A stretch of DNA of 64,000 nt from positions 2,976,001 through 3,040,000 of the forward strand of contig NZ_CP034145.1 in assembly GCF_003856835.1 (NCBI RefSeq), given 5' to 3'. The stretch is from Haloplanus aerogenes (GTDB lineage Archaea > Halobacteriota > Halobacteria > Halobacteriales > Haloferacaceae). Below are positions 29,755 through 63,394 of this stretch, piece by piece. Position 1 is the first letter of the stretch, and every line of letters starts with the position of its first letter. A model generated the notes under the pieces. That model searched no databases and had not been told where the DNA came from. It worked only from the letters and a program-made list of their open reading frames with translations. The position numbers and the translations under genes were made by a program.

Positions 29755-29845
29755 TCGCCCCTAGAGTTAAAAAAGAAAGCAGCTCGTATTATTTCCATAA
29801 GTTAACCGCATTCGTCCGTGGTTGGCTGTCAGGAGGTATCGAACG

Positions 29846-34471: not shown

Positions 34472-34873
34472 TCAGTCCAATCTCCTCTGCACCTGCTTTT
34501 GGAACGTATTGAGTCGGGCTTCTAAGCTCTCAACCTGCTCCTCCACTTGATGCACCTTCTCCACGAGTTCTCGGTGAGTCAGGTTCTCGTACTGGTCTAG
34601 ATCTTCTTCATCCTGTTTTAGTCGCTCTTGTCCGTTCTCGGTTAGTTCGGCTTGTTTTGGTGCTTGGAAGACGCGTTTCTGGCCATCGATTACGCGTTCG
34701 ACCATTCCGTCGGGTTTCTCGACGTGGATGAGGCCCTGTTCTTCGAGTTTTTCGAAGGCGTAGGTGACGTGATGGTTTTCGAGGGTAGTGACTGCGGTGA
34801 TCTTCTGGACGTCGTCTTTCCCGTTGCCGATACAGGTGAGGACGACCCGGTCTTTCTCTCTGAGCGAGGTCAT
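34472..34873 (-). CDS. Winged-helix protein with C-terminal coiled coil
   Basis: A 133-residue protein. Residues 1-75 look like a MarR/PadR-like winged helix (REKDRVVLTCIGNGKDDVQKI, HHVTYAFEKLEEQGLIHV, DGQKRVFQAPKQAELTENG). Residues about 85-133 form a coiled coil (LVEKVHQVEEQVESLEARLNTF). The ATG at 34873 overlaps the VirD4-like stop codon. It probably regulates transfer genes or acts as a relaxosome-type accessory; both are inferred. Confidence 0.7.
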   Translation of the reverse strand: MTSLREKDRVVLTCIGNGKDDVQKITAVTTLENHHVTYAFEKLEEQGLIHVEKPDGMVERVIDGQKRVFQAPKQAELTENGQERLKQDEEDLDQYENLTHRELVEKVHQVEEQVESLEARLNTFQKQVQRRLD

Positions 34874-36777
34874 AATTCGAGGAGGACACATTTGGTTCCG
34901 AGTTCTGTGCAGAAATCGTCCTCATTACGGTAGAGGCAAGCCACCTCTAGATCCTCGCGAGTGCTGTACTCCAGCTCTGGACACTCCATCTCGGTTTTTT
35001 GGCGTTCCTGTAGCTCTTCCCCGGATAGTTCGAGGATTCGGTACTCGACCTGTTTCAACACCTCTACGTCGGTTACGGATTCGCCGTCGTCAGTGTAGTA
35101 GCTGTAGCTGCCGTTCTCGTCTTCGTATTCTGAGCCACGGCGGTTGACTGGATCGGAGACAATGTTCTCCAGCTTCGCTGCGTTGCCTTCCTCAACGACG
35201 AAGAGGACTTCTCGCTCTTCTTCGAGGCCGCGTCGCAGGTTTTTGAGTACTTTTGCTGGTTTGCTGAGTGTCTGGCATTCGGCTTCGAGGTGTGCGAGTT
35301 CTCCGTCTGGGAGGTGGACGTGCCCGTCCGGTTTCTCTTCTTCGTGGCCTTGGTGGAACAGGTGGGTTTGGAATCCGCGTTCTTCAAGCTGTTTCTCGGC
35401 CTGTGCGAGCAGCTCCTGGTGTTTTTTGCTTCCGGCGTTGGCCTGGTTTCCGAGTGATTGCTCTATTTGGAGTTCTGTTCGAGATGCTCGATCAGCGGAA
35501 CTTTGTCTCTTGATCTGTTCTACGTCGCTGTAGTCGGCGTTCCAAGGCGGGTAGGTGTCGAAAGTAATCGCGTTTTGCTGGGTTCGTTCTGCGGGTTTCT
35601 GGACTGCGGCCCGGTATTTGCCCATGGAGGTTAGCGTGTCTCTGTCGAGGCCGTGGAGCATTCCGGCAATTCGGTTGATGTCTTCGGTGCCGCTTGGGTC
35701 GAAGAAGACCTTGGTGCGGCAGTTGTTCGAGACGGCCCGGCGCATTTCGGTGGCGAGTTGGTGGAGGTACTGAGTGGCGAGCCAGCATCCAAGCCGGTAT
35801 TCGCGGGCCTCGGACAGCATCTTAGTGAAGTTGGAGCCTTCACCTCCGAAGTTCTGGAGTTCGTCGACGTAGAGATAGAACGGCGTTCTCTGGTCTTCCG
35901 GTTCTGCGATCCGGCTCTGTGCTGCGGCCCAGATCTTGGTGATGGCGATACTGCCGACGAGTTCTGAGGTCGTTTCCCCGATGTCGCTTTTCCGGATGTC
36001 GACCAACAGGATCTTGCCCTCGTCGACTACCTCCTTGAAGTCGACGCCTGAGTCTTCGGCTCCGATCACTCTCCGGATGGTTGCGTTCATCACGAAGTCG
36101 TTCAGGCGGCGCTGCAACGGCTCCAGATCATACGAAGACATGTCCTCTTTCACCCGGACGAGCTGCTCACGGATTACCGAGTCCTGTATCCTGTCAACCA
36201 GATCCGAGAGCTCGTCTTCGTTGATGACGCAACGAAAGACGTCGACCAATGTCTTCGATTCGTCGTGTTTGATGTTCTGGTCAAGGTGTGCGCGGAGCAG
36301 GGTTTCTAGGACGCGGCCGAACTGGTCGCCCCAGTTCTCGGATTGGCGTTTGAACAGGTCGATGAGGTCGGAGACGATGATCTCCTTCTGGTTCTCCCGC
36401 TGTGCAGTGTTCATGTCGTCGGTGATGTGGGGTTCGAGGACGTTGATCGGTGTCACTGGTTCCTGAGCCGGGTTGACGTAGACGACGTCTTCGACTCTGT
36501 CTTCTGGGAGTTTGGCGAGGAATTCGTCGATCATCTCGCCTTTCGGGTTGATGATGCAGAGGCCGCGGCCTTTCCTCGCGTCCTGTAGGGCGACGTGGAG
36601 CAGGAGTTGGGTCTTCCCGTGTCCGGTCGGGCCGACGTTGAGGACGTGTGTCCGCCGCTTGTCGTCGTCGAGGGTGACGTTCTCCTCGACGCCCATCATG
36701 GATTTGCGGCTGCCGAGGTAGGTGATGGACTGATTCCCAGTACTCTCGATCAGGTTCTGAGCTTCTTCGGGAGTCAT
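34870..36777 (-). CDS. VirD4/TraG-like type IV coupling ATPase
   Basis: A 635-residue ATPase. Walker A is NVGPTGHGKTQLLLH near residue 48. GLCIINPKGEMIDEFL follows, as in TraG/TraD proteins, and Walker B is FYLYVDELQNFGGEGSNF. A TraM/TraD-recognition-like stretch (LGCWLATQYLHQLATEMRRAVSNNCRTKVFF) comes next. The last 180 residues include an acidic tail and a Cys-rich end (CPELEYSTREDLEVACLYRNEDDFC, read in parts). There are no N-terminal membrane helices, unlike bacterial VirD4. It would couple substrate DNA to the transfer channel. It overlaps both neighbours by 4 bases. Confidence 0.85.
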   Translation of the reverse strand: MTPEEAQNLIESTGNQSITYLGSRKSMMGVEENVTLDDDKRRTHVLNVGPTGHGKTQLLLHVALQDARKGRGLCIINPKGEMIDEFLAKLPEDRVEDVVYVNPAQEPVTPINVLEPHITDDMNTAQRENQKEIIVSDLIDLFKRQSENWGDQFGRVLETLLRAHLDQNIKHDESKTLVDVFRCVINEDELSDLVDRIQDSVIREQLVRVKEDMSSYDLEPLQRRLNDFVMNATIRRVIGAEDSGVDFKEVVDEGKILLVDIRKSDIGETTSELVGSIAITKIWAAAQSRIAEPEDQRTPFYLYVDELQNFGGEGSNFTKMLSEAREYRLGCWLATQYLHQLATEMRRAVSNNCRTKVFFDPSGTEDINRIAGMLHGLDRDTLTSMGKYRAAVQKPAERTQQNAITFDTYPPWNADYSDVEQIKRQSSADRASRTELQIEQSLGNQANAGSKKHQELLAQAEKQLEERGFQTHLFHQGHEEEKPDGHVHLPDGELAHLEAECQTLSKPAKVLKNLRRGLEEEREVLFVVEEGNAAKLENIVSDPVNRRGSEYEDENGSYSYYTDDGESVTDVEVLKQVEYRILELSGEELQERQKTEMECPELEYSTREDLEVACLYRNEDDFCTELGTKCVLLEL

Positions 36778-37760
36778 GGCTGTGCGGTTCGGATGTTCTG
36801 CTGGTTGCGGTCGGGAATCGAGACGAGTGCAGCGAGTTCGGAGGTGGAGGCCTGGAAACTGAGACTCCAGTCGTCGAACTCTCTTCTCCGGACAGCATCG
36901 GCGAACTCGAGGAAACGGGATTCGCGTAGTGATCGGACGGTACTGGTGTTGAGGTACTGTCCGGTCGTGGCGTCTTCGAAGTGATTGAACGCCCCAGCGA
37001 GTTCCTTCACCCGGCTGGGTGTGTGTTCTCCGGCTCCGATGACGAGGAACCGTATCGACACATCGAACCGTGGACTACCGGCCTTATCCTCAATCGCGTC
37101 TGCTTGCTGCCTCTCTCGCGGGGTTGCCGGGCGATCATGCCAAGGGAAGATATCAGGCTTCTCCTTACGGAGGTAACCCAGTTGCTTGTAGGCCCGTCGG
37201 ATCCACAGTCTGTTTCGAACCGGTTCTCCGATCTTGGGCTGGAACAGGATTTGAACGACGAACTTCGTGTCCCACATTGCGTGCCGATGTAAGGCCGCGG
37301 TCAGGGCGTTGATCGGCGGGATATCGTACTCGGTACGTAACGGGTAGCAGTCTCTTCTTCCGACAGTGAGCAGGCCCCCACCGATGGTGTCGTCTTTCAG
37401 AACCGGCAGTCCATCTACTCCAGTCTCGAATCCGAGTCCAGGGATCTGCTCGCTCAGATTGGTTCTCAGTTTGCGTTCCAGCCGCTTCGACGGTACCGTG
37501 TACTGGTAGGTGAGTTCGCCGCTCTGGCTTCTGCGTATTTCGTATGCGATAACCGGTGAGGCGTTGGACAGTCCGAGCCACTTGGTCTGGTACTCGGTGA
37601 TCCCCCTGACGAACTGGTTTAGCGTGGAAGGGATGTCGCCGTTTCGTGGCGGTTTTACCTCGACGGTGTACTGGCTTCCCGCTCCGTGATGCAGCTGCTC
37701 GGCTTCGTCTTCTGAGAGCGTGGTGTGGTTGTGGAGTAGTCGGTTTTTGAGGTCTATCAT
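36774..37760 (-). CDS. Unknown protein of the transfer operon
   Basis: A 328-residue soluble protein, MIDLKNRLLHNHTTLSEDEA at the start. It has beta-rich segments (QYTVEVKPPRNGDIPSTLNQFVRGI, VIAYEIRRSQSGELTYQYTVP) and a conserved-looking FDVSIRFLVIGAGEHTP. The pattern resembles the N-terminal, non-ATPase region found fused to archaeal HerA/TraG-type transfer ATPases. It lies between the VirB4-like and VirD4-like genes, overlapping the latter by 4 bases, so a shared complex is likely. No catalytic motif was found. Confidence 0.6.
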   Translation of the reverse strand: MIDLKNRLLHNHTTLSEDEAEQLHHGAGSQYTVEVKPPRNGDIPSTLNQFVRGITEYQTKWLGLSNASPVIAYEIRRSQSGELTYQYTVPSKRLERKLRTNLSEQIPGLGFETGVDGLPVLKDDTIGGGLLTVGRRDCYPLRTEYDIPPINALTAALHRHAMWDTKFVVQILFQPKIGEPVRNRLWIRRAYKQLGYLRKEKPDIFPWHDRPATPRERQQADAIEDKAGSPRFDVSIRFLVIGAGEHTPSRVKELAGAFNHFEDATTGQYLNTSTVRSLRESRFLEFADAVRRREFDDWSLSFQASTSELAALVSIPDRNQQNIRTAQP

Positions 37761-37766
37761 CGGGGG

Positions 37767-40364
37767 TCACTCCTGTAGCTGGATGTAGCGCTCTGAGAGT
37801 GCGGGGCAGGCGGTCAGCAGGGTTCTCGCTCGGTCGATGGATCCGTCAAGGATGACGACGCCGAAGATGAAGCGGCCTCTTGCGGTCCAAGCATCGAACC
37901 GGACGGGTTCTCCGACTCCGAACAGTTCGTCGACGGCGTACTGGACGTGGTCGGGTTGCCACCGACTTATGTGGATCAGGTACCGGTCGTTTTTCGGTCC
38001 GAGGTACGTACCGAGAACCCAGTCTTCTGCGACCGGAACTGCCCAGCGATCCGTCGTGGTTCCCAGTTTTTTCCAGCCCGGCAGCACTTCCGGGAGCAGT
38101 TCTTCAGCCGAGGCCTCTCTGTCTGGATCCTCCGCCTCGGTGATGCACGTATCCGGCAGTTCGAGCAATCCGTCCTCGGAGCCGCGGACTTCTCGGTTTC
38201 TGGCTTGGGACTGAGTGTTCAGGTTTCCGGTGTCTGCGTCGGGGTTTTTGATTTCTGTTCCACCATCTGACTTGACAGGGTTGTCTGGGTCGTTGGTCTG
38301 TTTTCCACGAGCTTCGGTGGCGGTGTTTTCGGGCATGGATATGAGGTTCTCTTCGAATTCTCTGGTGATGAGGTCGTGTTCGCTCTGCGTGGACTCGATT
38401 CGGAGCTTGGTGCTGACGGGACCGCGGATGATAGCCTCACTGAAGGGCAGGTCAGTACCGGTCCGTAGCCTCCGAAGTTCTACGGCCTGCTTCGGTGATA
38501 GGTTGAAGAAGTCGGAGACACCGGTCTCGACGTCTTGGTGTTTCATGAAGAGGTAGCAGTCGACGTTTCGAAGGATGTTCTGGCCTGCTTGACTGCGGGT
38601 GAAATCCGAGGCGTTCTGTGTGATCATCTCGACCGAGACGTTCCGGTCGCGGCCCTCTCTGACCAGTCCGTCTAACGCTTTTCTCCCGTTTGGGTCGAAG
38701 AGGAGGCGGTGAGCCTCGTCGATCAGGACGATGGTCTTCCGCCGGTCTTCCGATGCCTTCCTGTAGATGTGGCGGACAGCTTCGGACAGAAGATCGGTGT
38801 TGTCCTGGCTGCGGTCAGCGACCGTGTACCGCGTCACCGAGCCCGTCTCCAGGTCGGAAAGCGTGGCAGAATCGAGTACAACGGTCTCTCCATCGATTGC
38901 CTCGGTCAGGCTACCGTACTCCTGTTTTGGGTCGATGATGTAGACTTGGAGGTCGCTGTAGGTCTGCCAGGAGCGGAGGAGTGACAGGATCGCGAAGTAG
39001 GTCTTACCGGATCCGGTCTTGCCCATGCGGGCGATGTGGCCGGCTTCCCAGGTGAACCGGTTTAGGACGACTGGCATCGAGTTCCGCGTGTCGATACCGA
39101 ACGAGATGCCGCCTTCCTCGATCTTGTCGTGGGTGGAGAACGCGAAGCTAGCTGCGACTGACCGTGAGGGCATTATCATTCCACGGTCCAGTCCGTCGGG
39201 GCGCGTGATGGAGTCCGTCCGTATGCTTCGCGGGGTTTCCAGCCACGGTTCTTCGTGTTTAATGTTGAATCGGCGTAGCAGCCGCTTTACTTCTTCAGTG
39301 GTTTCGTCGACTTCTTCCCATGACTCGCCGCGGATGACGATGTATGCGGCGGCGTTCACGAGGCGTTCGTCACCCGATCCCTCGATGTCGATCAGATCCT
39401 GTGCGTCGGCTAGCTTCCGGTCGATTTCGGAGCTTCGCAAAGGGTTCGGTGTGGCGACAGTCTCGGCACGCATTCGGCCGACCAGGCGGCCCAGCTTCTT
39501 CCGTTGCTTATCCGACGCAGGTTCCACGTTCTGGACGACGTCGATGAATCCCGGCGCGTCCATGTTCAGTATGTCCGAGAGGACGCCTGGCCCGCGTTTT
39601 TCAGGGTAGCCGGAGATGCAGAGGATGCGCCGGTGGCTGTCTTCTCCGATGGTGTACCGGGTGTTGGTTAGTGAGGGTTCGGAGATTTCCAGCCTGTTGA
39701 GGGTTTGTTCCAGCGGGGTTCTGGTGATGTGGTTTGCTGAGAGGTCACCGGCGTTCAGGCTGTTTCGGATCATCCGACACCGCTCGACCGTGTCCTCGAT
39801 ACGGGCCTCGACTGACCGGGATTCGGATTCTTTCCAAGGTAGTATCGACGGTGAGTCTGGGGAATCTCTGATGACGACGTAGTGATCGGTGGTGACGGCT
39901 TGGTTCTTGACGCACCTACAGTCGGAGAGGTCGACCCGGCGTTTCCGGGAGTGGATCTCTACGGGATCTTCGATCTCACGGTGAAGGTTGGCAAGGGTGT
40001 CGCGGTTTACCTGCCAGTCTCGCTCCGACGCCATGTCGAGGTCTACGGAGTCGATCTCAACCAGTCCGATCACAACTCCGTTGTCGGTGACGGCGACCTG
40101 GTCTCGGACTTCGTACTCGCATTCCAGCTGCTGTTTCTCAGTGTGGAAGCGGAGCAAGTCGACCAGTACTTTGTCGAGAGTTTTACCGTGGATCTGGAGT
40201 TCGGCGAAGCCGATACCGACAACCGATCCTACAACGGCACCCGGGAGTCCGGCCAGGATCAAGCCGATAAATACTGGGAGAATAATTCTGACGAGGTCTC
40301 CGACGGTGTATCGCCAGAACTTGACTTTGAACTCCGTGATGGGAGCGGGGTACTGTACCTTCAT
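37767..40364 (-). CDS. VirB4/TraC-like conjugation ATPase with N-terminal membrane segment
   Basis: An 865-residue ATPase. Residues about 20-55 hold two hydrophobic helices (LVRIILPVFIGLILAGLPGAVVGSVVGIGFA), resembling a VirB3/PrgI-like domain fused to VirB4. The motor domain has Walker A ARMGKTGSGKTYFAIL near residue 440, IIDPKQEYGSL, and Walker B TIVLIDEAHRLLFDP. The QNASDFTRSQAGQNILRN segment is typical of VirB4/HerA. The last 170 residues are an extra domain after an Asp/Asn-rich linker. It powers assembly of the transfer apparatus. It overlaps the VirB6-like gene by 4 bases. Confidence 0.88.
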   Translation of the reverse strand: MKVQYPAPITEFKVKFWRYTVGDLVRIILPVFIGLILAGLPGAVVGSVVGIGFAELQIHGKTLDKVLVDLLRFHTEKQQLECEYEVRDQVAVTDNGVVIGLVEIDSVDLDMASERDWQVNRDTLANLHREIEDPVEIHSRKRRVDLSDCRCVKNQAVTTDHYVVIRDSPDSPSILPWKESESRSVEARIEDTVERCRMIRNSLNAGDLSANHITRTPLEQTLNRLEISEPSLTNTRYTIGEDSHRRILCISGYPEKRGPGVLSDILNMDAPGFIDVVQNVEPASDKQRKKLGRLVGRMRAETVATPNPLRSSEIDRKLADAQDLIDIEGSGDERLVNAAAYIVIRGESWEEVDETTEEVKRLLRRFNIKHEEPWLETPRSIRTDSITRPDGLDRGMIMPSRSVAASFAFSTHDKIEEGGISFGIDTRNSMPVVLNRFTWEAGHIARMGKTGSGKTYFAILSLLRSWQTYSDLQVYIIDPKQEYGSLTEAIDGETVVLDSATLSDLETGSVTRYTVADRSQDNTDLLSEAVRHIYRKASEDRRKTIVLIDEAHRLLFDPNGRKALDGLVREGRDRNVSVEMITQNASDFTRSQAGQNILRNVDCYLFMKHQDVETGVSDFFNLSPKQAVELRRLRTGTDLPFSEAIIRGPVSTKLRIESTQSEHDLITREFEENLISMPENTATEARGKQTNDPDNPVKSDGGTEIKNPDADTGNLNTQSQARNREVRGSEDGLLELPDTCITEAEDPDREASAEELLPEVLPGWKKLGTTTDRWAVPVAEDWVLGTYLGPKNDRYLIHISRWQPDHVQYAVDELFGVGEPVRFDAWTARGRFIFGVVILDGSIDRARTLLTACPALSERYIQLQE

Positions 40365-49174: not shown

Positions 49175-49325
49175 GTGTTTCGGGTAGTTCGGCGTATCGG
49201 AATATAATATCTCTAAACAAGAAATCGGCGAACAAATCTTTCTATTCAAATCTTCCAAGCTTTGGTTCAGATGTGAGTTGAGAGTCACCCCGTCCTATTT
49301 AAAACTCAGACACCAATTTTCGCTT
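49175..49325. other. Promoter-containing spacer before the structured RNA
   Basis: No coding frame was found. TATTTAAAA at 49296-49304 is a strong TATA box; transcription would start near 49326, about 12 nt before the basal stem of the RNA described below. Confidence 0.5.
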
Positions 49326-49550
49326 GAAAGACCAAACGAAGGAAGGAGAGAAGTCGAAAGGCAGTGAACGGATAATACCTAGCCCCGTCCGGGCACCTGA
49401 TGAAGGGTTCACTGTCCTTCAACCGTGATGAGGGGTGAGAGCCCCAAGAGAACTGCTGTGTACCGGGACTCTGGTCAAAGGGTTAGGTGTCCGTATACAG
49501 CTGTGAATCCATTCGAAGCGCTGTCTTTCCCAGCTTCTTTCCTTCTATTT
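49326..49550 (+). ncRNA. Structured RNA of unknown class upstream of the second recombinase
   Basis: The segment has no open frame but folds end to end. P1 is about 23 bp: 49338-49344 with 49539-49545, 49349-49353 with 49534-49538, and 49356-49366 with 49519-49529 (11 bp, two G-U). P2 is 49377-49385 with 49480-49488. Hairpins are 49401-49406 with 49416-49421, and GGGGU-GAGA-GCCCC at 49432-49445, capped by a GNRA tetraloop. CTGCTGTGTAC (49453-49463) can pair with GTATACAGCTG (49493-49503) at 10 of 11 positions, which would make a pseudoknot across P2. A TATA box 26 bp upstream supports a discrete transcript. It may be free-standing or the 5' leader of the recombinase, whose ATG lies at 49569. 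Confidence 0.65.
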
Positions 49551-49568: not shown

Positions 49569-50807
49569 ATGTCGACGAAACGCTATATCAACGTTGAGAA
49601 ACAACTGCAAAATCTGAAAGATTCCGAGCTTGAACCAGCTAATGTAGACGCAATACGGAAGTTCATAGATCACTGCGCTGCTGAGGACATCAGTGAGGTG
49701 CGGCAAAGCCGATTGATAACTGCTCTGAAATCTCTGATACTGAATTTTGGCCCTGACAGCTTTGAGTTAAGCGGCGCTACTGAAGAAGAGTTGAAGATGA
49801 CTATTGCCTCTTTGAACAGGAGTGATTACGCTGACTCCACCAAGCATACGATGAGGGCTGCTGCGAAGAAGTTCTACAAGATCGAGAACGGTGGACACGA
49901 GCATCCGGAGAAGGTAGATTTCTTTTCTGCGTCGGCCAGCCAGAAGTCGACGGTAAGTCGGGAGGATATTTTCACCAAGGAAGAGCTGAAGCGGTTGTTC
50001 AGCGGTTTCATCAATACGCGTGACCGGGCCTTTACGATGGTTCTGTATGAGTCGGCGGCTCGTCCTGGCGAACTCTTGTCGCGGAATCTTGGGGACTTCA
50101 CGTCGAATGCGAAGGGCGACTTCATCTATCTTGAGGGGATCAAGGGCACGCCTGATCGTACGAATCAGCTGGTTCGTTCGGGACGGCCCTTGCGTGAGTG
50201 GATCGCTCAGCATCCTCTCGGTGGAGAGGTAGGCGATATTGATGATCCGAGTGTGCCGCTGTGGGTCAAGACTCAGCAACAGGAGTGCAAGAAGTGTGGA
50301 AAGGTTCCGCAGCAGCATGGAAATACAGATTGCCTGTATGATCCAGATCTCCGGGATCGGTGGAAGTACGATAGTTTTCTACGCCGGTTCCAAGATGCCT
50401 GTGAACGAGCCAGTATACCGGACAACAAGCGTAGGCCGTACAACCTTCGGCACACTCGATTGACGGAGGTGGCGACGTTCATGGGTTACGAGCAGCTCAA
50501 CAAGTTCGCCGGCTGGACACCCGGAAGCGACCGAGCGAAAGTCTACGTCCACCTCAACAACGACGACGTCAACGAAGCGATCAGAGAAGAGTACGGTCTG
50601 AGCGGTGAGGAAGACGAGGATCAGAGTGAAGACTGCCCGTTCTGCGGGACAGAGAACGAGTCCATACACTCGGAGTGCCGTAACTGCGGACGGCCTCTCA
50701 GCTTGGAAAAGGAGCAATCGAAGGAAGAGAAACAGGAAGTCTTGGAGCGTCTCACGGAATTGGAAGAGAAAGGAGTACTGGAGAAGTTGGAACAACTGGA
50801 GAATTAG
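49569..50807 (+). CDS. Tyrosine recombinase with zinc-ribbon insert and tail
   Basis: A 412-residue recombinase. Catalytic residues are R165 (YESAARPGELL), K192 (GIKGTPDRT), R294 in PYNLRHTR (with Tyr in the usual first-His place), W316 (FAGWTPGS) and nucleophile Y326 (KVYVHL). Cys pairs appear in an insert (CKKCGKVPQQHGNTDC, near 240-255) and in a C-terminal zinc ribbon (CPFCGTENESIHSECRNCG). A terminal coiled coil follows (LERLTELEEKGVLEKLEQL). It resembles recombinases of haloarchaeal plasmids and viruses. The structured RNA precedes it. Confidence 0.88.
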   Translation: MSTKRYINVEKQLQNLKDSELEPANVDAIRKFIDHCAAEDISEVRQSRLITALKSLILNFGPDSFELSGATEEELKMTIASLNRSDYADSTKHTMRAAAKKFYKIENGGHEHPEKVDFFSASASQKSTVSREDIFTKEELKRLFSGFINTRDRAFTMVLYESAARPGELLSRNLGDFTSNAKGDFIYLEGIKGTPDRTNQLVRSGRPLREWIAQHPLGGEVGDIDDPSVPLWVKTQQQECKKCGKVPQQHGNTDCLYDPDLRDRWKYDSFLRRFQDACERASIPDNKRRPYNLRHTRLTEVATFMGYEQLNKFAGWTPGSDRAKVYVHLNNDDVNEAIREEYGLSGEEDEDQSEDCPFCGTENESIHSECRNCGRPLSLEKEQSKEEKQEVLERLTELEEKGVLEKLEQLEN

Positions 50808-55391: not shown

Positions 55392-55464
55392 CGGGGGCAT
55401 TGGGCGGTTCGAACGGAAAATTGAAGTGTCTAGCCGGCACGAATCAAACGAAGAGATTATTAGC

Positions 55465-56949
55465 ATGAGTACGGACAATCTCGAAGTTTCTAAGACCGGA
55501 CAAGAAAAGGGAGAATCCGTATTTGACACCCGGTCACTCAAGGAAATCTATGAGGAAATACAGAACACCTATCTCGCGGACAATCGCCCTTGGGTCATCG
55601 GATATAGTGGTGGAAAGGACTCTACTACCGCCCTTCAGCTAATCTGGTACGCTATTGAGGATCTTCCAGAAGAAAAAAGAAATAAGCCGATATACGTTAT
55701 TTCGAGCGATACGTTAGTCGAAACACCGAAGATAGTCAATCATATCGTCTCTACTCTCGAAAACATAAACGAATACGCAGAGAAGAAAAATCTCCCGTTC
55801 ACGGCCCACAAGGTCACCCCCAAAGTCGACGACTCATTCTGGGTTAATCTGATTGGCCGAGGCTACCCGGCACCGAACCAAAACTTCCGCTGGTGTACTG
55901 AGCGGCTCAAGATCGACCCTGCGGACCGTTTCATCGAGAACAAAGTCTCCGAACACGGCGAAGTCATCGTCGTTCTAGGAGCACGCAAAGCCGAATCCGC
56001 CACCCGCGAACAGGTGATGGAAATGCACAGCATCGACGGTAGCGTGCTCTCCCGCCACAACAAGTTCGCCAACGCCTTTGTCTACACCCCTATCGAGGAC
56101 TGGATCGTCGACGACGTCTGGACGTACCTCATCCAAGCCGTCGAAAATCCATGGGGCAAGAACAACAGAGATCTCGCAGCCCTCTACCAGGAAGCCGACG
56201 ACGAATGCCCGATGGTCATCGACACGAAAACACCCTCCTGCGGGAACAGCCGGTTCGGCTGCTGGACCTGCACCGTGGTCTCCGAGGACAAGGCGATGCA
56301 GAATATGATCGACGAGGGAGAGGACTGGATGGAACCCTTGTTGGAGTTCCGTGACTTCCTCAAAGAAACACAGGATCCGGAGAAGAAGCCGAAATTCCGG
56401 CAAGTAAAGGGCCGTCAACACGGCTACGTCAAAGAGAAAACCAACGGCAGCGACGGCATCATTCCCCGTGCCCACAAGTTCGAGTTCTGCAAGGACCTGC
56501 TCCGCAAGCTCCTAGAAACGCAGAAAGAGGTCAACGAAAGCCTCCCCGAAGACGAGGAAATGGAGCTGATCCGAGAGGAAGAGATCAGAGAAATCCGCCG
56601 CCTCTGGCGCGAAGAACGTGCAGACTGGGCTGACTCCGTACCAAAGATCTACAACGAGGTCATGGACGACAACCTCAACTGGGTACATGACGACCTCGGT
56701 TCCTTCGGAGAGATGGAAGCAGAAGTCCTGAACGAAGTCTGCGAAGACCATGACGTACAGCCGGAACTCATCAAACGCCTGCTCGACACCGAGTTCCAGC
56801 ACTACGGAATGAAACGCCGGGCCTCGATCTACAGCGAGATAGACAAGGTCATGAGGGAGGACTGGCGGGACCTAGAAGAGATCGTTTCGGAGATCGAAGG
56901 GGAAGACCGGATAGAAGCATGGCAGTACGACGGTATCGGAGGAACCTGA
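55465..56949 (+). CDS. dndC: DNA phosphorothioation protein DndC
   Basis: A 494-residue PAPS-reductase-like ATP pyrophosphatase that activates DNA backbone phosphate for sulfur entry. The PP-loop is VIGYSGGKDSTTALQ (residues 48-53 for SGGKDS). The iron-sulfur cysteines are C144 (FRWCTERL), C259, C266 and C269 (SCGNSRFGCWTCT). The C-terminal half is helical. An upstream GTG at 55426 is an alternative start. It is followed 9 bp later by dndD. Confidence 0.95.
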   Translation: MSTDNLEVSKTGQEKGESVFDTRSLKEIYEEIQNTYLADNRPWVIGYSGGKDSTTALQLIWYAIEDLPEEKRNKPIYVISSDTLVETPKIVNHIVSTLENINEYAEKKNLPFTAHKVTPKVDDSFWVNLIGRGYPAPNQNFRWCTERLKIDPADRFIENKVSEHGEVIVVLGARKAESATREQVMEMHSIDGSVLSRHNKFANAFVYTPIEDWIVDDVWTYLIQAVENPWGKNNRDLAALYQEADDECPMVIDTKTPSCGNSRFGCWTCTVVSEDKAMQNMIDEGEDWMEPLLEFRDFLKETQDPEKKPKFRQVKGRQHGYVKEKTNGSDGIIPRAHKFEFCKDLLRKLLETQKEVNESLPEDEEMELIREEEIREIRRLWREERADWADSVPKIYNEVMDDNLNWVHDDLGSFGEMEAEVLNEVCEDHDVQPELIKRLLDTEFQHYGMKRRASIYSEIDKVMREDWRDLEEIVSEIEGEDRIEAWQYDGIGGT

Positions 56950-56958
56950 AGATACTCT

Positions 56959-58986
56959 ATGAGGATAAACAAGCTGGTAATCACCGATTTTGGACCTTAT
57001 CGTGGACGCAACGAGATCACTCTCACATCAAGTGACGACTCTCCAATCGTCTTGTTCGGCGGGAAAAACGGGGCAGGGAAGACCACACTGTTTGAGGCCA
57101 TAGGATTCTGCCTCCACGGGAAATCCTCGCTCGGTCGTCGCACCGCCAGAAAAGACTACGAACAAGCCATCCGGAGCAAACTCCACGAATACCCTGACGG
57201 CAAAGCAGACAGCGCCGCCGTACGCTTGGAGTTCGAGTACGCCCACATGGGCGAAGTCGACCACTACTCGGTCGAACGCTCATGGCGAGACAGAGGCAAG
57301 AGCATCGTCGAAAACCTGGAGGTTCGAAGAAACGGACAGATACCATCCGAGCTGAACGAAGACCAGTGGCAGGACTTCCTCAAGGAACTCGTTCCTCCCG
57401 GCGTCTCACAGCTGTTCTTCTTCGACGGCGAGAAGATTCAAGAACTCGCATCCGCAGTCGAATCTGACGCTGACTTCGAAGACTCGATGTACTCCCTTCT
57501 CGGTCTGGACCTGATCGAACGACTGGACACTGACCTCTCCATCTACATCTCCCGCAAACTGGATGAGAGCGGAGTCGAAGGCATCAACGAGGAACTCGAA
57601 GAACTCCGAGATGAGCGAAACCAGTTCGAGCAGGAACTCAAGGATTTCAAGCAGGAGAAAGAAGAGAAAGAAGAGAAACTGCAGGAGCTGGACTCGAAAA
57701 TCGACAGCAAAGAGTCCAAGATCGCTCAGGAAGGCGGGTCATACGCCGACAAGCGAGAAGAACTGAAAGAGCGCCGTGCAGAACTCAACGCCAGCATCGA
57801 ACAACACGAAAATCAGATCCGGGAAATCGCTATGGGTGCATACCCGTTCACCTTGGCACCGGATCTGTGTGAGGCCGTCGTCGACCGGCTCAAGACCGAG
57901 ACAGAACGGCAGAACAAGGTGACTGCCAGAAACGAACTCACTGATGAACTCAACAACGTGCTCGGGGACAACGAAGTCTGGCAGGAAACCGAGGTTCCTG
58001 AAGACCAGATTGGGGAAGTCGCGGAACGTATCCAGCAAAAGCTCCAGGGACGTCTTGAAATCGATGATGAAGAGCCAGAGCTCGCACACCAGTTCTCCGA
58101 AGCACAACGCCAAGAAATCTACTCCCTAGTGGACAAGGCGTTGCACGACGTTCCGCAGCAGCTGTCAGAGGTGACTGAAGAACTGGAAGAGGAAACCCGA
58201 GAACTCCAAGAAGTGGAAGCTGGTCTTGGCAAAGCACCTGATGAAGAACTCATCTCCCCGCTCATCGAAGACCTGAACGAGCTGACCGAAGAGAGGGGTG
58301 CGATCAAGTCCCGGCTGGAAGAGCTTGAAGAGGGAATCAGTAAGGCACAGACAAAACTCGAACGGAAAGAAAACGAGATCGAGAACAAGCTGGAGAAGAA
58401 AGCCCGTGTCGAAGATGTTTCCGAACGGGCAAACCTAGCTACAGACGTACGTGACGCAGTTCAGGACTTTCGAGAACAACTTGCTAAGGAAAAACTCCGG
58501 AAACTGGAAAGCAAACTCAGTGAACGGTACATCACGCTCTCCAACAAGGGCAAGTTCTACGACAAGATTGAGATAGACGAGGAAACCCTTGATATCTCCA
58601 TCAAGACCATCCACGGCAACAAGAAGCCGCACACTGAGCTTTCCGCTGGTGAACGACAGATATTCGCCACCTCTCTACTCTGGGCGCTGGCTGACATCTC
58701 CGACCGTCCACTTCCGTTCATCGTCGACACACCTCTTGGACGCCTTGACAACGACCATCGGGATAACCTGATCACGCACTTCTTCCCCGAGGCAGCCCAC
58801 CAAGTCATAATCTTCTCCACCGACACTGAGATCGACGACAGCCAGTACCAGAAACTGGAGGGCTACATCTCTAATGCCTACCATCTCGAATACGACGAAA
58901 CAGAAGGCCGGACAATTCCCTCGAAGGGTTACTTCTGGGACGATGATGACGAAAACCAGCAGTCCCTAGAGGAGATCACTTCATGA
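56959..58986 (+). CDS. dndD: DNA phosphorothioation ATPase DndD
   Basis: A 675-residue SMC/Rad50-like protein. Walker A is VLFGGKNGAGKTTLFEA (near residues 34-42). Long coiled coils fill residues about 210-540. The ABC signature is ELSAGERQIFATSLLWAL, with Walker B PFIVDTPLGRLDNDH. DndD is proposed to nick or open DNA and supply energy for sulfur insertion in the DndCDE complex. The stop overlaps dndE (ATGA). Confidence 0.94.
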   Translation: MRINKLVITDFGPYRGRNEITLTSSDDSPIVLFGGKNGAGKTTLFEAIGFCLHGKSSLGRRTARKDYEQAIRSKLHEYPDGKADSAAVRLEFEYAHMGEVDHYSVERSWRDRGKSIVENLEVRRNGQIPSELNEDQWQDFLKELVPPGVSQLFFFDGEKIQELASAVESDADFEDSMYSLLGLDLIERLDTDLSIYISRKLDESGVEGINEELEELRDERNQFEQELKDFKQEKEEKEEKLQELDSKIDSKESKIAQEGGSYADKREELKERRAELNASIEQHENQIREIAMGAYPFTLAPDLCEAVVDRLKTETERQNKVTARNELTDELNNVLGDNEVWQETEVPEDQIGEVAERIQQKLQGRLEIDDEEPELAHQFSEAQRQEIYSLVDKALHDVPQQLSEVTEELEEETRELQEVEAGLGKAPDEELISPLIEDLNELTEERGAIKSRLEELEEGISKAQTKLERKENEIENKLEKKARVEDVSERANLATDVRDAVQDFREQLAKEKLRKLESKLSERYITLSNKGKFYDKIEIDEETLDISIKTIHGNKKPHTELSAGERQIFATSLLWALADISDRPLPFIVDTPLGRLDNDHRDNLITHFFPEAAHQVIIFSTDTEIDDSQYQKLEGYISNAYHLEYDETEGRTIPSKGYFWDDDDENQQSLEEITS

Positions 58987-59384
58987 GCCAGAAGTTCAAC
59001 CGCATCACGATAGGTAACGACGCAACCAACCGGTTGAAAATGCTGAAAGCCAACACCGGTATGACCCCGAACTACCTGTGCCGAATCGGGTTCTGCTACT
59101 CTCTGAACGAATCCCGGCCACCAAACCCGGAAGAATACGACAACGAGGGCCAGACGTTCAACCGGTACACCCTCCTTGGAGAACACGACGCACTCTACAT
59201 GGCACTCCTGAAGGAGCGGCTGATCCAGGAAAACAAAGACCCTGAAGAGGTTCTGTACGACGAGTTCGTCGCACACCTCAACCGAGGAGTGATCCGAGTC
59301 CACGGCAACGTCAGAGACCTAACTGACCTCGAAGACCTGGTGCCCGGTGAAGTGAAAGGGAAGCACGCTCAACAGGAAGGATAA
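58983..59384 (+). CDS. dndE: DNA phosphorothioation protein DndE
   Basis: A 133-residue protein, KFNRITIGNDATNRLKMLKA at the start, the ribbon-helix-helix-like DNA-binding fold of DndE. RIGFCYSLNESRPPNP and LYMALLKERL continue the family pattern. It binds nicked DNA as an oligomer and positions the modification complex. It has a 4-base overlap with dndD and a 1-base gap to dndA. Confidence 0.92.
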   Translation: MSQKFNRITIGNDATNRLKMLKANTGMTPNYLCRIGFCYSLNESRPPNPEEYDNEGQTFNRYTLLGEHDALYMALLKERLIQENKDPEEVLYDEFVAHLNRGVIRVHGNVRDLTDLEDLVPGEVKGKHAQQEG

Positions 59385-59385
59385 C

Positions 59386-60564
59386 ATGAGTCCTGACGTG
59401 GCAACACCCATCTACCTTGACCATCACGCCACCACCCCTGTAGACGAAGACATCGTCGACGGGATGAAACCCTACTTCACAGAAAACTACGGGAATCCTG
59501 CCAGCGAAGATCATATTTACGGGGCCAACGCCAAGAAAGCGGTCAACGAAGCCCGAGAACGAATCTCAGAAGCGGTAAACTCCAGGCCTGAGGAAATCAT
59601 CTTTACCAGCGGAGCCACCGAATCCGACAATCTGGCGATCAAGGGAGCCGCCGAGTACGCGGCCAAACACGACAAGGGGAACCACGTCATCACAGCTGTC
59701 ACCGAGCACGAAGCCGTACTCGAAGCCTGCGAAGCAGTGGAAGAGAAAGGATTCGACGCTACATATCTCCCTGTCGACGAACACGGCCAGGTCGATCCCA
59801 GTGACGTAGAAGACGCGATACGTGACGACACCGTGCTGATCTCGATTATGGCCGCAAACAACGAGATCGGTACCACTGCACCCCTGCAAGAAATCGGTGA
59901 GATAGCGAAAGAGCACGAGGTCTTCTTCCACACCGACGCAGTCCAGGCAATCGGCTACCTCCCTATCGACGTCGAAGAAATGGGGATCGACCTGATGTCT
60001 ATCTCCGGCCACAAGATCTACGGGCCGAAAGGCGTCGGCGCACTCTACGTCCGCCGCAGAAACCCGAAAGTCAAACTTGAACCACTGCTTCACGGCGGCG
60101 GCCACGAACGAGGCTGGAGATCTGGAACTCTCAACGTACCATCCATCGTCGGTTTCGCAAAGGCAGTGGAGATGGCCGACAAGAACATGGAAGAACGTAC
60201 CAGCCACGTTGACGAGCTCACCTCGTATATGTGGGAACGCCTCAACGAGGAGCTGGACGACATCGTCCTGAACGGTCACCCGGAGGAGCGGATACCCAAC
60301 AACCTCAACATCAGCTTCACCGGCGTAGAGAACAAAGCTCTCGTCAAGAACCTTCAACCCGATATAGCGGTCTCAGCAGGCTCCGCCTGTACCACGGGCC
60401 AGGTTGAAGCCTCACACGTCCTCCAGGCCATCACCGACAACGAAGACAGGTGGCACAACGCCATACGGTTCGGCCTCGGAAAAGACAACACAAGAGAAGA
60501 AATCGAGTACGCCACCGACGAAGTAATCAAGATCGTCAACAGACTCCGCAACATCACCTTCTAA
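59386..60564 (+). CDS. dndA: Cysteine desulfurase DndA/IscS-like
   Basis: A 392-residue class V aminotransferase. PLP lysine is K210 in SISGHKIYGPKG; the mobile catalytic Cys is C335 in SAGSACTTGQ. The N-terminus reads IYLDHHATTPVD. It supplies persulfide sulfur to DndC. Its position after dndE gives the order C-D-E-A found in archaeal phosphorothioation loci. Confidence 0.93.
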   Translation: MSPDVATPIYLDHHATTPVDEDIVDGMKPYFTENYGNPASEDHIYGANAKKAVNEARERISEAVNSRPEEIIFTSGATESDNLAIKGAAEYAAKHDKGNHVITAVTEHEAVLEACEAVEEKGFDATYLPVDEHGQVDPSDVEDAIRDDTVLISIMAANNEIGTTAPLQEIGEIAKEHEVFFHTDAVQAIGYLPIDVEEMGIDLMSISGHKIYGPKGVGALYVRRRNPKVKLEPLLHGGGHERGWRSGTLNVPSIVGFAKAVEMADKNMEERTSHVDELTSYMWERLNEELDDIVLNGHPEERIPNNLNISFTGVENKALVKNLQPDIAVSAGSACTTGQVEASHVLQAITDNEDRWHNAIRFGLGKDNTREEIEYATDEVIKIVNRLRNITF

Positions 60565-60570
60565 AAACTC

Positions 60571-60777
60571 ATGACCCAGTCAAAACAACTTCAGAGTAAG
60601 ATCGTCGACAAACTCGGGGTAATGAGGGACGATATCCACGTCACCAGCGACGAGGATGCACTCACCTTCTACCTTCCACCCGACAAGCTCGAAGAAGCCG
60701 AAACCATCCTTGACAGAGATTTAGAGGTACTGGAAGAGCACGAACACGAGTACCTCGTCAAAGCCGACATCCAGTAA
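60571..60777 (+). CDS. Small protein following dndA
   Basis: A 68-residue protein, MTQSKQLQSKIVDKLGVMRD at the start and ending EHEYLVKADIQ, with a beta-alpha-beta pattern (ALTFYLPPDKLEEAETILDRDLEVL). It begins 6 bp after dndA and is therefore in the same operon. I do not recognise it; it may be a sulfur-relay or assembly partner. It faces the convergent resistance genes 13 bp away. Confidence 0.65.
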   Translation: MTQSKQLQSKIVDKLGVMRDDIHVTSDEDALTFYLPPDKLEEAETILDRDLEVLEEHEHEYLVKADIQ

Positions 60778-60790
60778 GACCAGTCAGCAG

Positions 60791-61249
60791 TCAGTCGTCA
60801 TCATCCGTTACATCTGCATCCGGGCGGTGATCCTGATGCATCGTAACAACTTCAGTCCGGAGTGTGGAGAGAGTATCTTTTGGTCCACGGACCAAGTCGT
60901 CGATATACTCGAAACCGCCATTCGCGTATTCCTGGACTATTTGAGCTACCTGGCTGCCATCCTTCAGGATCTCGGCGTCGTCAGCTTCCTTCACTGCAAC
61001 CGATTTGATTACCCACTGCTCGTCCTTCGTCAAGGCACTCCAAGGAATGCTCCCCGACCTTGAGTCAAGAGACTTCTGGAGGCCCTGGTCATACCCGATT
61101 CCCAGCGACACCATGAACAACTTGCTCATCTGCTGACCTGCGAAAGGAGAGCCGCTGTCCTCGTCAATCAACTCCTTATAGCGGTCTCGCTTTTTCTCCT
61201 CGATCACAAGGTCGCGCGGGATCTCGGTTTCCTCAATCTCGTCGATCAT
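60791..61249 (-). CDS. Phosphorothioation-associated resistance protein, 152 aa (candidate PbeD)
   Basis: A soluble protein, MIDEIEETEIPRDLVIEEKK at the start, with a central FAGQQMSKLFMVSLGIGYDQGLQ and SALTKDEQWVIKSVAV that recall the DndE-like/ArsR-size partners of restriction modules. The acidic tail is PDADVTDDDD. It is the last gene of a four-gene minus-strand set convergent with dndCDEA. The order helicase, small protein, SMC ATPase, small protein matches what is expected of PbeABCD; the letter is inferred from order only. Confidence 0.6.
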   Translation of the reverse strand: MIDEIEETEIPRDLVIEEKKRDRYKELIDEDSGSPFAGQQMSKLFMVSLGIGYDQGLQKSLDSRSGSIPWSALTKDEQWVIKSVAVKEADDAEILKDGSQVAQIVQEYANGGFEYIDDLVRGPKDTLSTLRTEVVTMHQDHRPDADVTDDDD

Positions 61250-63219
61250 CTTTCAACCACCTCGGTTTTCAACCCGCTATTGCTCAGCAGGTATTCATTA
61301 GAGATACTATCCTTCATCCTGCTTTCAACCTGGGTAGTGTACTCTGAGTCTGTCATGAGGAAGGTGAGCTGTGTTCCCTCTATGTAGTCCGGGATGTTCT
61401 CGGCAATCCTGTTCCGTGGTTCACTAGATATCCTGCCCAGAGGCGTGTCAATAACGATGGGGGCTTCGAATCCACTGATACTGGTGAGGGCGGACATGAA
61501 CGACAATGCCAAGACCTGCTTCTCTCCAGCAGACAGGGAACCAATCTTGTCCATTCCGAACTCATCCAGGACTCGGATAGTATAGTCCTCCTCCAAGACA
61601 ATCTCGTATTCTTCGTCTTTCCAGATCAGCTGGTTGAAGTACTCCTCTATTTTCTCCTGAGCCTGACTACGGATCTCGCCCAATACAGTCTGCTGGATCT
61701 CATTGACGTGGTCAATCGACTGCTCCAGGAACTCCAGCTTCTTCACCAGGTCCTGGTGCTTCTCTTTCTTCTTTAATTCCTTAGTCAGCTCCTCGTCTTT
61801 GTTATCTACCTCTTCCTGCTTCAACGCGATATCACTCACAATATCCTCTTTCTGATCCTTCAGGGTCTCCTCCCGGTCTTCTAAGTCGTCAAGCTGATCC
61901 TCAATAGCATCTACGTCGATATCTTCGTCCGAAGTATCGTACTGCTTCAGCTCCTCTTTGATCTCGTTGATCTCAGTCTCCGTGTCACTAATCTCCTCTT
62001 CGACCTCACGGATCTGGCCTCGCAAATCCAAGAGCTGGCTCACTTTCTCAGTTCCAACATCCTGGATACGGGGGATCTCACTCTTACCCTCCAGATTTTC
62101 ATCCTCATCCAGGCCCTGCTCAACTTCCTCAAGAAGATCTTTAAGCTCGTGCTCGTGGTCCTCTTCTATCGGCTCACCGCAGATACACTCACCCTCTTCC
62201 AAGAGCTCTCGGATGAAGTAGTCCTGAATCCTCGGAGGTAACTTCCCTTTCTCGTGTAACTCGTTGATTTGCTCCAGAGTGAAATCAAGAGCATCGTAAC
62301 AGTACACAATAGGAGCTGCCTCCGCCAGGACATCGCCAGATCGATTCTGAAGATTCTCTTTTCTACTGCGGAGATTCTTCAACCGATCCTTCGCCTTGCT
62401 ACGCTGCTCCTGTCTACTCCGAATATACTTGTCATCACTATCCTCAAGCTTCGATTCCTTCTGCTTGATCAGCCGCCGCGTCTCCTCAAGGTTAGAAACG
62501 ATCTCTTCCTTGTCACCCTCTAAATCCTCAAGTTCGTCTCTCAGCTCGTTCAATTCCTCACGAAGCTCATCTTCCTTCCCGGAGAAATCATCCTTATCCT
62601 GTATCTGGTCACGAACTCTCTTCAGGTGGTTCTCCGATCTCTCCAGAAGGTCAATATGCGAGACGTCGACGATACCTTTCTTCACATTCTCCGAATACTC
62701 TTCTTCAAAAAACGTGTCAAGCCGTTCACCGTCAAAGAGGTAGTAATCACGGACGTCAACAGGGAGAATCTGGTTTAGGTGAGCGATAGGATCGTCCTTG
62801 ATATCCCAATCAGAGCCCTCCTTACGCTGTAGTGTAAGATCGTCAGAAGCGTCGCTAAACTGGTTCTCCCCCTTCTTGACCGTTGTAAAACTCCGCTTGA
62901 ACCTGTATTCCGGACTATCTCTGCCAAACCGGACCTCCACATACCCATTAAGCTCTTCACCTTCATCTAGATCTTCCAGCTTGTCTCGATTGCCGTACGG
63001 GTAAACATTCAGTCCTTCTTCTTTCGACTCCTCAAGATGTTCCTCGGTATCGTAAAGACAGAAAGTGATAGCGTTCAGCAGATTTGACTTTCCAGAGCCG
63101 TTCTCTCCCTCTATGACATTGATATTCTTCTTACCATCAGTTTTGAGCTCGATTCGTTGCTTTCCGTGGAATTGTCTGTAGTCCTTCACCTCCACAGAAT
63201 GAATCTGTATCCTACTCAT
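61246..63219 (-). CDS. SMC/Rad50-like ATPase of the phosphorothioation resistance module (candidate PbeC)
   Basis: A 657-residue protein. Walker A is NVIEGENGSGKSNLLNAI near residue 40, and the N-terminal domain ends with DYYLFDGERLDTFFEEEY. Coiled coils surround a central CICGEP, like the zinc hook of Rad50. The signature is SLSAGEKQVLALSFMSAL, with Walker B APIVIDTPLGRISSE. It parallels DndD but is a separate gene on the opposite strand, so it probably works in immunity rather than modification. ATG 63219 overlaps the preceding gene by 8 bases. Confidence 0.82.
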   Translation of the reverse strand: MSRIQIHSVEVKDYRQFHGKQRIELKTDGKKNINVIEGENGSGKSNLLNAITFCLYDTEEHLEESKEEGLNVYPYGNRDKLEDLDEGEELNGYVEVRFGRDSPEYRFKRSFTTVKKGENQFSDASDDLTLQRKEGSDWDIKDDPIAHLNQILPVDVRDYYLFDGERLDTFFEEEYSENVKKGIVDVSHIDLLERSENHLKRVRDQIQDKDDFSGKEDELREELNELRDELEDLEGDKEEIVSNLEETRRLIKQKESKLEDSDDKYIRSRQEQRSKAKDRLKNLRSRKENLQNRSGDVLAEAAPIVYCYDALDFTLEQINELHEKGKLPPRIQDYFIRELLEEGECICGEPIEEDHEHELKDLLEEVEQGLDEDENLEGKSEIPRIQDVGTEKVSQLLDLRGQIREVEEEISDTETEINEIKEELKQYDTSDEDIDVDAIEDQLDDLEDREETLKDQKEDIVSDIALKQEEVDNKDEELTKELKKKEKHQDLVKKLEFLEQSIDHVNEIQQTVLGEIRSQAQEKIEEYFNQLIWKDEEYEIVLEEDYTIRVLDEFGMDKIGSLSAGEKQVLALSFMSALTSISGFEAPIVIDTPLGRISSEPRNRIAENIPDYIEGTQLTFLMTDSEYTTQVESRMKDSISNEYLLSNSGLKTEVVER

Positions 63220-63394
63220 TTTCTGAGACGATGTCGTCGAGCATATCTTTGTAATCGTCGCTGTACCGAGGCATAGGCTGGTCAAGATTATCGCGCTCGA
63301 ACTTCAGAATCTGTTTAATGAACGCTCTCTGATCCTCATCCTCGATTTCGTCGACCTTGTCCGTGATTAGACGGTTGACTTCTGGTTTATCCAT
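63212..63394 (-). CDS. Small 60-aa protein of the resistance module (candidate PbeB)
   Basis: The frame reads MDKPEVNRLITDKVDEIEDE, then DQRAFIKQILKFERDNLDQP and MPRYSDDYKDMLDDIVSENE. It is wholly helical and acidic. It lies between the helicase and the SMC-like ATPase and overlaps the latter by 8 bases. It may link the two proteins. Its small size and fixed position are the reasons to keep it. Confidence 0.65.
   Translation of the reverse strand: MDKPEVNRLITDKVDEIEDEDQRAFIKQILKFERDNLDQPMPRYSDDYKDMLDDIVSENE

What the first reader, a model, noticed from the sequence alone, without database searches (positions are those of the whole stretch)
49326..49550. Large structured RNA of unknown class in front of a recombinase
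A non-coding 225-nt stretch begins about 26 bp after a strong TATA box and closes on itself with a roughly 23-bp interrupted basal stem. Inside are a second 9-bp stem, a GNRA-capped hairpin, a 6-bp hairpin, and a 10/11 pairing that would cross the second stem as a pseudoknot. Such compact pseudoknotted architecture is typical of ribozymes, riboswitches and guide-type RNAs. It ends just before GAGGTG and the recombinase ATG, so it may be a leader that gates integrase synthesis or a separate element RNA.
Basis: partly seen in the sequence, partly recalled or inferred. Interest (0 to 1): 0.85.

Follow-up and report, generated by a model that had tools for sequence, protein, structure and literature searches.

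The report
Integrase leader RNA spanning its attP site
The folded stretch in front of the recombinase is a real, conserved RNA leader, but the same DNA is also the site at which the recombinase inserts its element at the ends of tRNA genes, so that inserting the element cuts this RNA gene in two.

Summary
The structure is real (z = -4.4; antisense strand only -0.8) and matches no Rfam family. All 28 uninterrupted full-length relatives of the recombinase carry a homologous leader, 184-321 nt long, behind a TATA box at near-constant distance.

The leader is also the recombinase's attachment site (attP). In a nanohaloarchaeal MAG it is split: the 3' half plus recombinase follows tRNA-Met (attL), while TATA box plus 5' half lies on another contig (attR). 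They share the 14-bp repeat CCCGGCTTTCCCAT, 13 nt of it the tRNA 3' end. An unsplit relative carries the same sequence. A distant relative shows the same pattern at tRNA-Ile with another 14-bp block.

The core is a dyad of TGAACCG motifs. CAANNGAA recurs in direct copies. Strand S2 equals tRNA 3' ends in several elements, and S3, exactly 17 nt downstream, is complementary to S2 and covaries with it. Two distant integrases behind other tRNAs keep that geometry.

Best reading: an attP-spanning leader of a tRNA-targeting integrase, probably tying Int synthesis to the excised state (inferred). RNA-guided recombination is not excluded, but unlikely. The window's copy is intact; its element apparently sits in the sR-tMet gene, probably through a separate integrase.

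The parts
49298..49305 (+). TATA box (TTTAAAAC) of the leader/integrase promoter
   Evidence: 34-39 nt before the first conserved motif in most of 30 leaders, including the nanohaloarchaeal attR; promoter function inferred
49326..49550 (+). structured leader RNA that is also the attP region of the recombinase
   Evidence: fold z -4.4; sense strand folds better than antisense across 27 leaders, p = 0.0002; conserved in all 28 uninterrupted full-length relatives; split in attL/attR
49333..49340 (+). copy 1 of direct repeat CA[AT]NNGAA (CAAACGAA), possible arm-type site
   Evidence: 98 copies on the + strand and 3 on the - strand of 29 leaders, shuffles 7.3 +/- 2.8
49341..49366 (+). 5' strand of basal stem P1/P2
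   Evidence: MFE structure; own 5'/3' halves pair better than exchanged halves
49355..49429 (+). attP core module (75 columns, almost gap-free in 26 leaders; model R2)
   Evidence: cmsearch 72.3 bits; also matches its own reverse complement at 49421-49347, i.e. dyad symmetry
   Evidence: conserved inverted motif, little covariation
49382..49385 (+). strand S1 (GCCC), pairs with S2
   Evidence: 85.6% of cells paired, 0 of 500 shuffles
49383..49396 (+). position that corresponds to the 14-bp repeat shared by attL and attR; strand exchange expected here
   Evidence: by alignment with L207, L019 and L262; not observed in the window itself
49391..49395 (+). strand S2 (GGGCA): in relatives its end coincides with the 3' end of a tRNA
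   Evidence: the tRNA source of this particular S2 was not identified
49407..49414 (+). right core-type motif GTTCACTG
   Evidence: inverted copy of 49362-49369 about the same axis
49413..49417 (+). strand S3 (TGTCC), complementary to S2 at 17-nt spacing
   Evidence: 86.2% of cells paired, 22 cells changed on both sides, 0 of 500 shuffles; 22 of 26 leaders at spacing 17
49445..49452 (+). copy 2 of direct repeat (CAAGAGAA)
49510..49517 (+). copy 3 of direct repeat (CATTCGAA)
49519..49546 (+). 3' strand of basal stem P2/P1
49551..49556 (+). Shine-Dalgarno GAGGTG
   Evidence: sequence; GTGA-like motif at this place in most relatives
49569..50807 (+). tyrosine recombinase, 412 aa
   Evidence: Pfam Phage_integrase E 1.7e-7; residues that I assign as catalytic (R165, K192, R294, H295, W316, Y326) invariant or nearly so in 16 relatives; weak profile match to XerC/D/A

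Best explanation
The stretch does two jobs. As DNA it is the attP site (about 190-320 bp) of a tRNA-targeting tyrosine integrase: a dyad core with TGAACCG-type motifs, an exchange block carrying the 3' end of a tRNA, and direct repeats CAANNGAA that look like arm-type sites. As RNA it is the 5' leader of the integrase mRNA, transcribed from the TATA box just upstream, and its ends pair across the attachment site. In the excised circle, promoter, complete leader and int gene are joined. Integration at a tRNA 3' end splits the leader: tRNA, 3' half and int at one end; promoter and 5' half at the other, pointing into host DNA. Shown here: conservation, structure with covariation, the split with attL, attR and an unsplit relative, tRNA-derived S2 strands. 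Inferred: that the leader is transcribed, that the core and repeats bind Int, and that the arrangement makes Int synthesis depend on the excised state. Whether the fold raises or lowers Int synthesis is not known.
For: Leader in front of all 28 uninterrupted full-length recombinase genes. attL: tRNA-Met ...CCCGGCTTTCCCAT then TCTATCAAGGG, 3' half and int. attR in the same MAG: TATA, 5' half...GCCGCCCGGCTTTCCCAT then host DNA. Unsplit relative in a haloarchaeon: CCCGGCTTTCCCATTCTATCAA. The two nanohaloarchaeal halves still pair (-24.9 kcal/mol). Distant integrase in a second nanohaloarchaeon: attL at tRNA-Ile and an attR 20.8 kb away sharing the 14 bp CTCTCGGGGCTTAA. S2 equals tRNA 3' ends over at least 6 nt in 7 of 26 leaders by strict column (background rate 0.65%, p about 3e-10), 9 of 26 with hand-set ends. 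Basal stem covaries; sense strand folds better than antisense; TATA spacing nearly constant; core matches its own reverse complement. Overlap of att sites with integrase promoters is known and linked to autoregulation (PMC2951348).
Against: No transcript or recombination assay was available. Only one member of the close family is seen split at a tRNA; the other leaders are intact although they lie in genomic contigs. In the window the element appears to be integrated in the sR-tMet gene, probably by another integrase, so this attP is not its present junction. The tRNA source of the window's S2 (GGGCA) was not found. L019 and L262 are contigs of one incomplete MAG. With tRNA ends shuffled within their last 8 letters, 300 trials gave a mean of 0.9 but a maximum of 7 matches, so the tRNA statistic is partly compositional. 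DNA constraints alone (dyad core) also make both strands fold better than shuffles (mean z -3.7 sense, -2.6 antisense).
Confidence: 0.76

Rival explanations
1. Pure DNA element: a lambda-like complex attP whose inverted and direct repeats are protein-binding sites; the RNA fold is a by-product.
For: Dyad core and direct repeats. Both strands fold better than shuffles. In a distant relative behind tRNA-Ile the 17-nt S2/S3 geometry is kept while a TATA-like sequence lies downstream of S3, so S2:S3 may not be part of that mRNA.
Against: The basal stem and S2:S3 change sequence between elements while staying complementary, although the recombinase hardly changes; a protein-binding site would keep its sequence. 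Sense folding exceeds antisense folding.
Confidence: 0.2
2. RNA-guided tyrosine recombinase: the leader RNA (S3, perhaps S1 and a second copy in long leaders) pairs with the tRNA 3' end and directs the integrase, in the manner of IS110 bridge RNAs.
For: S3 is complementary to the tRNA-derived strand S2 and covaries with it at exactly 17 nt, while the recombinase is highly conserved. Its place next to the recombinase resembles IS110 bridge RNA (PMC11208160).
Against: Complementarity is only 5-6 nt; no second guide for the left side was found by eye; specificity for a tRNA can come from attP/attB core identity alone (Ms6 precedent, PMC1762012); the leader gene is destroyed by integration; distant relatives keep the geometry without a long leader.
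Confidence: 0.08
3. Ligand riboswitch, ribozyme or stand-alone regulatory RNA unrelated to recombination.
For: Strong fold, two mutually exclusive helices S1:S2 and S2:S3.
Against: No Rfam match; the att halves explain the position; the mutually exclusive strand is the tRNA-derived one.
Confidence: 0.03
4. Attachment site folded as single-stranded DNA, as integron attC sites are.
For: The top strand folds better than the bottom strand; the module includes a VirB4/HerA-like ATPase, so entry as single-stranded DNA is thinkable.
Against: TATA box at near-constant distance and position in front of the Shine-Dalgarno point to RNA; attL and attR look like ordinary double-strand exchange.
Confidence: 0.06

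Closest known systems
tRNA-associated integrase modules with attL overlapping the integrase promoter (KplE1 intS, PMC2951348)
   Same: Tyrosine integrase next to a tRNA 3' end; att site and int expression region overlap; expression can depend on the att state.
   Different: There the overlap is with the promoter and regulation is by IntS/TorI binding. Here promoter and int lie on opposite sides of the core and a covarying RNA fold spans it.
Phage lambda attP (about 240 bp with core and arm sites, PMC8371274) and sib retroregulation of int (Schindler and Echols 1981; details from general knowledge)
   Same: Similar length, core plus repeated sites; in lambda too an RNA structure near att is separated from int by integration.
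   Different: sib is downstream of int and acts through RNase III; here the structure is the 5' leader and is itself cut in two.
IS110/IS621 bridge RNA (PMC11208160)
   Same: Structured non-coding RNA next to the recombinase gene with a strand complementary to the target.
   Different: IS110 enzymes are not tyrosine recombinases; bridge RNA has two guide loops for target and donor. Here there is one 5-6 nt complement, and the RNA gene overlaps the exchange point.
SNJ2-type and other archaeal tyrosine integrases (PMC8371274)
   Same: Haloarchaeal tyrosine integrase of an integrative element, attachment in tRNA or small-RNA genes.
   Different: The 412-aa family shows no reportable similarity to the 308-aa integrase of the same element (E 0.34), carries C-terminal zinc-ribbon cysteines and has this leader.

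Membership tests
Tyrosine recombinase (Phage_integrase, PF00589) | catalytic domain with conserved R, K, H/R, H/W and Y | tested here: met
   Pfam E 1.7e-7 above gathering cut-off; residues assigned by motif are conserved in 16 relatives; function not assayed
tRNA-targeting integrase with attP/attB identity block | attL and attR flank the element and share a core that restores the tRNA | tested here: met
   L019/L262 share CCCGGCTTTCCCAT for a 67%-identical relative; distant relative shares CTCTCGGGGCTTAA; not seen for the window copy itself
Known Rfam RNA family | score above gathering threshold | tested here: not met
   no match at gathering, nothing meaningful at E up to 10
Structured RNA | covariation beyond shuffles and slid controls | tested here: met
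   the 9-bp stem only marginally
Structured RNA | transcript detected | not testable with these tools
   no RNA-seq available; TATA box only
IS110 bridge RNA system | IS110 recombinase (DEDD domain plus serine transposase domain) | tested here: not met
   the enzyme is a tyrosine recombinase
IS110 bridge RNA system | two loops with left and right guides for target and donor | tested here: inconclusive
   only a right-side complement (S3) found; no left guide seen by eye
Lambda-like complex attP | arm-type sites bound by Int | tested here: inconclusive
   direct repeats CAANNGAA strongly enriched; binding not testable

The most novel reading that the evidence does not exclude
The leader RNA takes part in target choice: its S3 strand pairs with the tRNA 3' end and makes this the first RNA-assisted tyrosine recombinase, which would explain how nearly invariant enzymes use several tRNA genes and why S3 follows S2 at exactly 17 nt in distant integrases too.
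Probability: 0.08. Interest if true: 0.95.

Novelty: new variant of a known kind. Interest (0 to 1): 0.62.

Why it matters
Regulated integrases and att sites near int promoters are known, but I found no report of a conserved, covarying RNA fold that spans attP and is cut in two by integration. It offers a simple way to tie integrase synthesis to the excised state in archaea. The att sites also keep a piece of the tRNA they last used: one haloarchaeal genome holds a leader with the tRNA-Met end of a nanohaloarchaeon, evidence of exchange of such elements between the two lineages. The complement placed exactly 17 nt behind the tRNA end, kept in distant integrases, is a new and unexplained rule of att architecture that can be tested directly.

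Tried and rejected
Rfam at gathering score and at E up to 10: nothing. Second copy of the leader core elsewhere on the elements as the partner att site: only chance matches of 13-15 nt. The window's recombinase as the integrase of its own 42-kb element: unlikely, since the element ends lie at the sR-tMet 3' end next to a 308-aa integrase. IMG/VR for further relatives: none; a DNA pattern gave 53 contigs that were not analysed further. Nanohaloarchaeal tRNAs as source of the window's S2: no match. PX (9-bp) stem as an RNA helix: at most marginal covariation. Exchange between S2 and S3 (dif-like geometry): disfavoured because the 14-bp blocks end 1 to 3 nt behind the tRNA end. Model R1 was built with a helix shifted by one column and replaced by R2. 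AlphaFold model of the recombinase had mean pLDDT 57.9 and was not used. Literature on RNA-guided tyrosine recombinases and on structured att leaders: nothing relevant in the open library.

Full report
What was checked. The stretch 49326-49550 folds at -87.5 kcal/mol, against -67.0 +/- 4.7 for dinucleotide shuffles (z -4.4). The reverse complement is no better than its shuffles (z -0.8). Over 27 leaders the sense strand folds better than the antisense strand (mean z -3.7 against -2.6, Wilcoxon p = 0.0002). No Rfam family matches. The window is haloarchaeal: the only Rfam hit is the box C/D RNA sR-tMet at 29665-29736, and the recombinase's relatives are haloarchaeal.

Relatives. The recombinase (49569-50807, 412 aa) has full-length relatives of 62-89% identity in haloarchaea. 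27 of 391 class-wide genomes hold a match, and three family-wide searches added only two records, one of which duplicates a known leader. All 28 uninterrupted full-length copies have a homologous leader of 184-321 nt, beginning with CTTGAAAACCCAAACGAAGGAAGGAGA-like sequence and ending with a UCUCCUUC-like strand. A TATA box lies 34-39 nt before the first conserved motif in most leaders.

Structure. Basal stem: matched 5' and 3' parts pair at -27.4 kcal/mol on average and exchanged parts at -22.2, none of 20,000 permutations as good. In the core of 75 columns, almost free of gaps in 26 sequences, two windows stand out of 2016: S2:S3 and S1:S2. S2:S3 pairs in 86.2% of cells with 22 cells changed on both sides, 0 of 500 shuffles; S1:S2 pairs in 85.6%. 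They share strand S2 and exclude each other. It is a conserved inverted motif TGAACCG about the same axis as S1:S2, and the core model matches its own reverse complement, as expected of a recombinase core site.

The attachment site. In the nanohaloarchaeal contig L019 a tRNA-Met gene runs straight into the 3' half of the leader, then the recombinase. The 5' block with TATA box lies on another contig of the same MAG, L262, and runs into host DNA at the same place. Both contain CCCGGCTTTCCCAT, of which 13 nt are the tRNA 3' end. A haloarchaeal genome (G280, L207), in which the recombinase gene is broken by an insertion, has the unsplit leader with CCCGGCTTTCCCATTCTATCAA. The two nanohaloarchaeal halves still pair (-24.9 kcal/mol). 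So integration splits the leader, and the exchange block lies around S2.

tRNA ends in other leaders. With the S2 end fixed by this junction, 7 of 26 leaders match the 3' end of a haloarchaeal tRNA over 6 or more nt, against 0.65% at other positions; 9 with hand-placed ends, e.g. GCGAGTCCA (tRNA-Ala) and CCCGGCCCG (tRNA-Lys). Shuffling the last 8 letters of the tRNA ends gave a mean of 0.9 and a maximum of 7 in 300 trials, so composition helps and the direct attL/attR evidence carries more weight. The window's own S2 (GGGCA) has no identified tRNA.

A 17-nt rule. In 22 of 26 leaders the five bases at exactly 17 nt behind S2 pair with it in at least 4 positions; at other spacings mostly 0-2 leaders do, except 8 at spacing 10. 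Two distant integrases found directly behind tRNA genes show it too: tRNA-Ile (GGGGCT, 17 nt, AGCCCC; 6 of 6) and tRNA-Thr (CCGGCT, 17 nt, AGCCGT; 5 of 6), and 17 is the best of the spacings 8-30 in both. Two examples are few, and the geometry was noticed in the first before the second was tested. For the tRNA-Ile case an attR with the 14-bp block CTCTCGGGGCTTAA lies 20.8 kb away, so exchange is at the tRNA end there as well, not between S2 and S3. The purpose of the complement is unknown.

Repeats. CA[AT]NNGAA occurs 98 times on the plus strand and 3 times on the minus strand of 29 leaders (shuffles 7.3 +/- 2.8), at recurring positions. I read it as arm-type sites; an RNA motif is possible.

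Surroundings. Many of the elements share a module: VirB4/HerA-like ATPase, leader, recombinase, a 50-aa and a 137-aa protein, and two Orc1/Cdc6 proteins, with cargo between. In the window the 13-bp GAGTGCCGAGGCC at the end of sR-tMet recurs at 41.7 and 42.5 kb downstream, and a 308-aa integrase (30334-31260) lies just inside. The element appears to be integrated there; the leader's attP is therefore unused at present.

Mechanism. Shown: conservation, fold, split, tRNA-derived S2. Inferred: transcription from the TATA box, Int binding, and that complete leader plus promoter exist only in the circle (or in an element integrated by other means), so that Int is made there and silenced by integration. 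Whether the fold itself represses, stabilises or merely protects is open. Autoregulation where att overlaps an integrase promoter is known in KplE1 (PMC2951348); retargeting of an integrase between tRNA-Ala genes by changing the attP core is known for Ms6 (PMC1762012). Guide RNA for a recombinase is known only for IS110-type enzymes in the papers read (PMC11208160); here a short complement is all that speaks for it.

Limits. No transcript, no assay, one split example within the close family, an incomplete MAG, and covariation statistics that do not model the tree.

Noticed in passing
29665-31260 and L073 (own 71441, 72176): Element of about 42 kb apparently integrated in the box C/D gene sR-tMet (13-bp repeat GAGTGCCGAGGCC) with its own 308-aa integrase; the same repeat ends the G028 and G370 elements, and G370 carries a 65%-identical integrase.
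   Followed up: partly
55426-63285: DndC, DndD, DndA and PbeC-like genes: phosphorothioation defence cargo.
   Followed up: partly
34870-40364 (-): Large minus-strand ATPase-like proteins with weak mad8/HerA/DndH similarity.
   Followed up: no
L257, L258, L252: Leader cores without the recombinase beside the sR-tMet gene in three other haloarchaea; in L257/L258 S2 (TCGGCCA) equals the end of a nanohaloarchaeal tRNA-Phe.
   Followed up: partly
L207 (G280): Haloarchaeal genome holding a leader with the nanohaloarchaeal tRNA-Met end; recombinase gene broken by an insertion. Suggests transfer of the element between the two lineages.
   Followed up: partly
L270 and L304: Distant integrases directly behind tRNA-Ile and tRNA-Thr carry a complement of the tRNA 3' end at exactly 17 nt.
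   Followed up: partly
L058 (G147): Shared module in circularly permuted gene order, consistent with a circular form opened at a different place.
   Followed up: no
L020 and L244 (G312): A further small-class leader separated from its recombinase, apparently by an insertion sequence at the contig ends.
   Followed up: no
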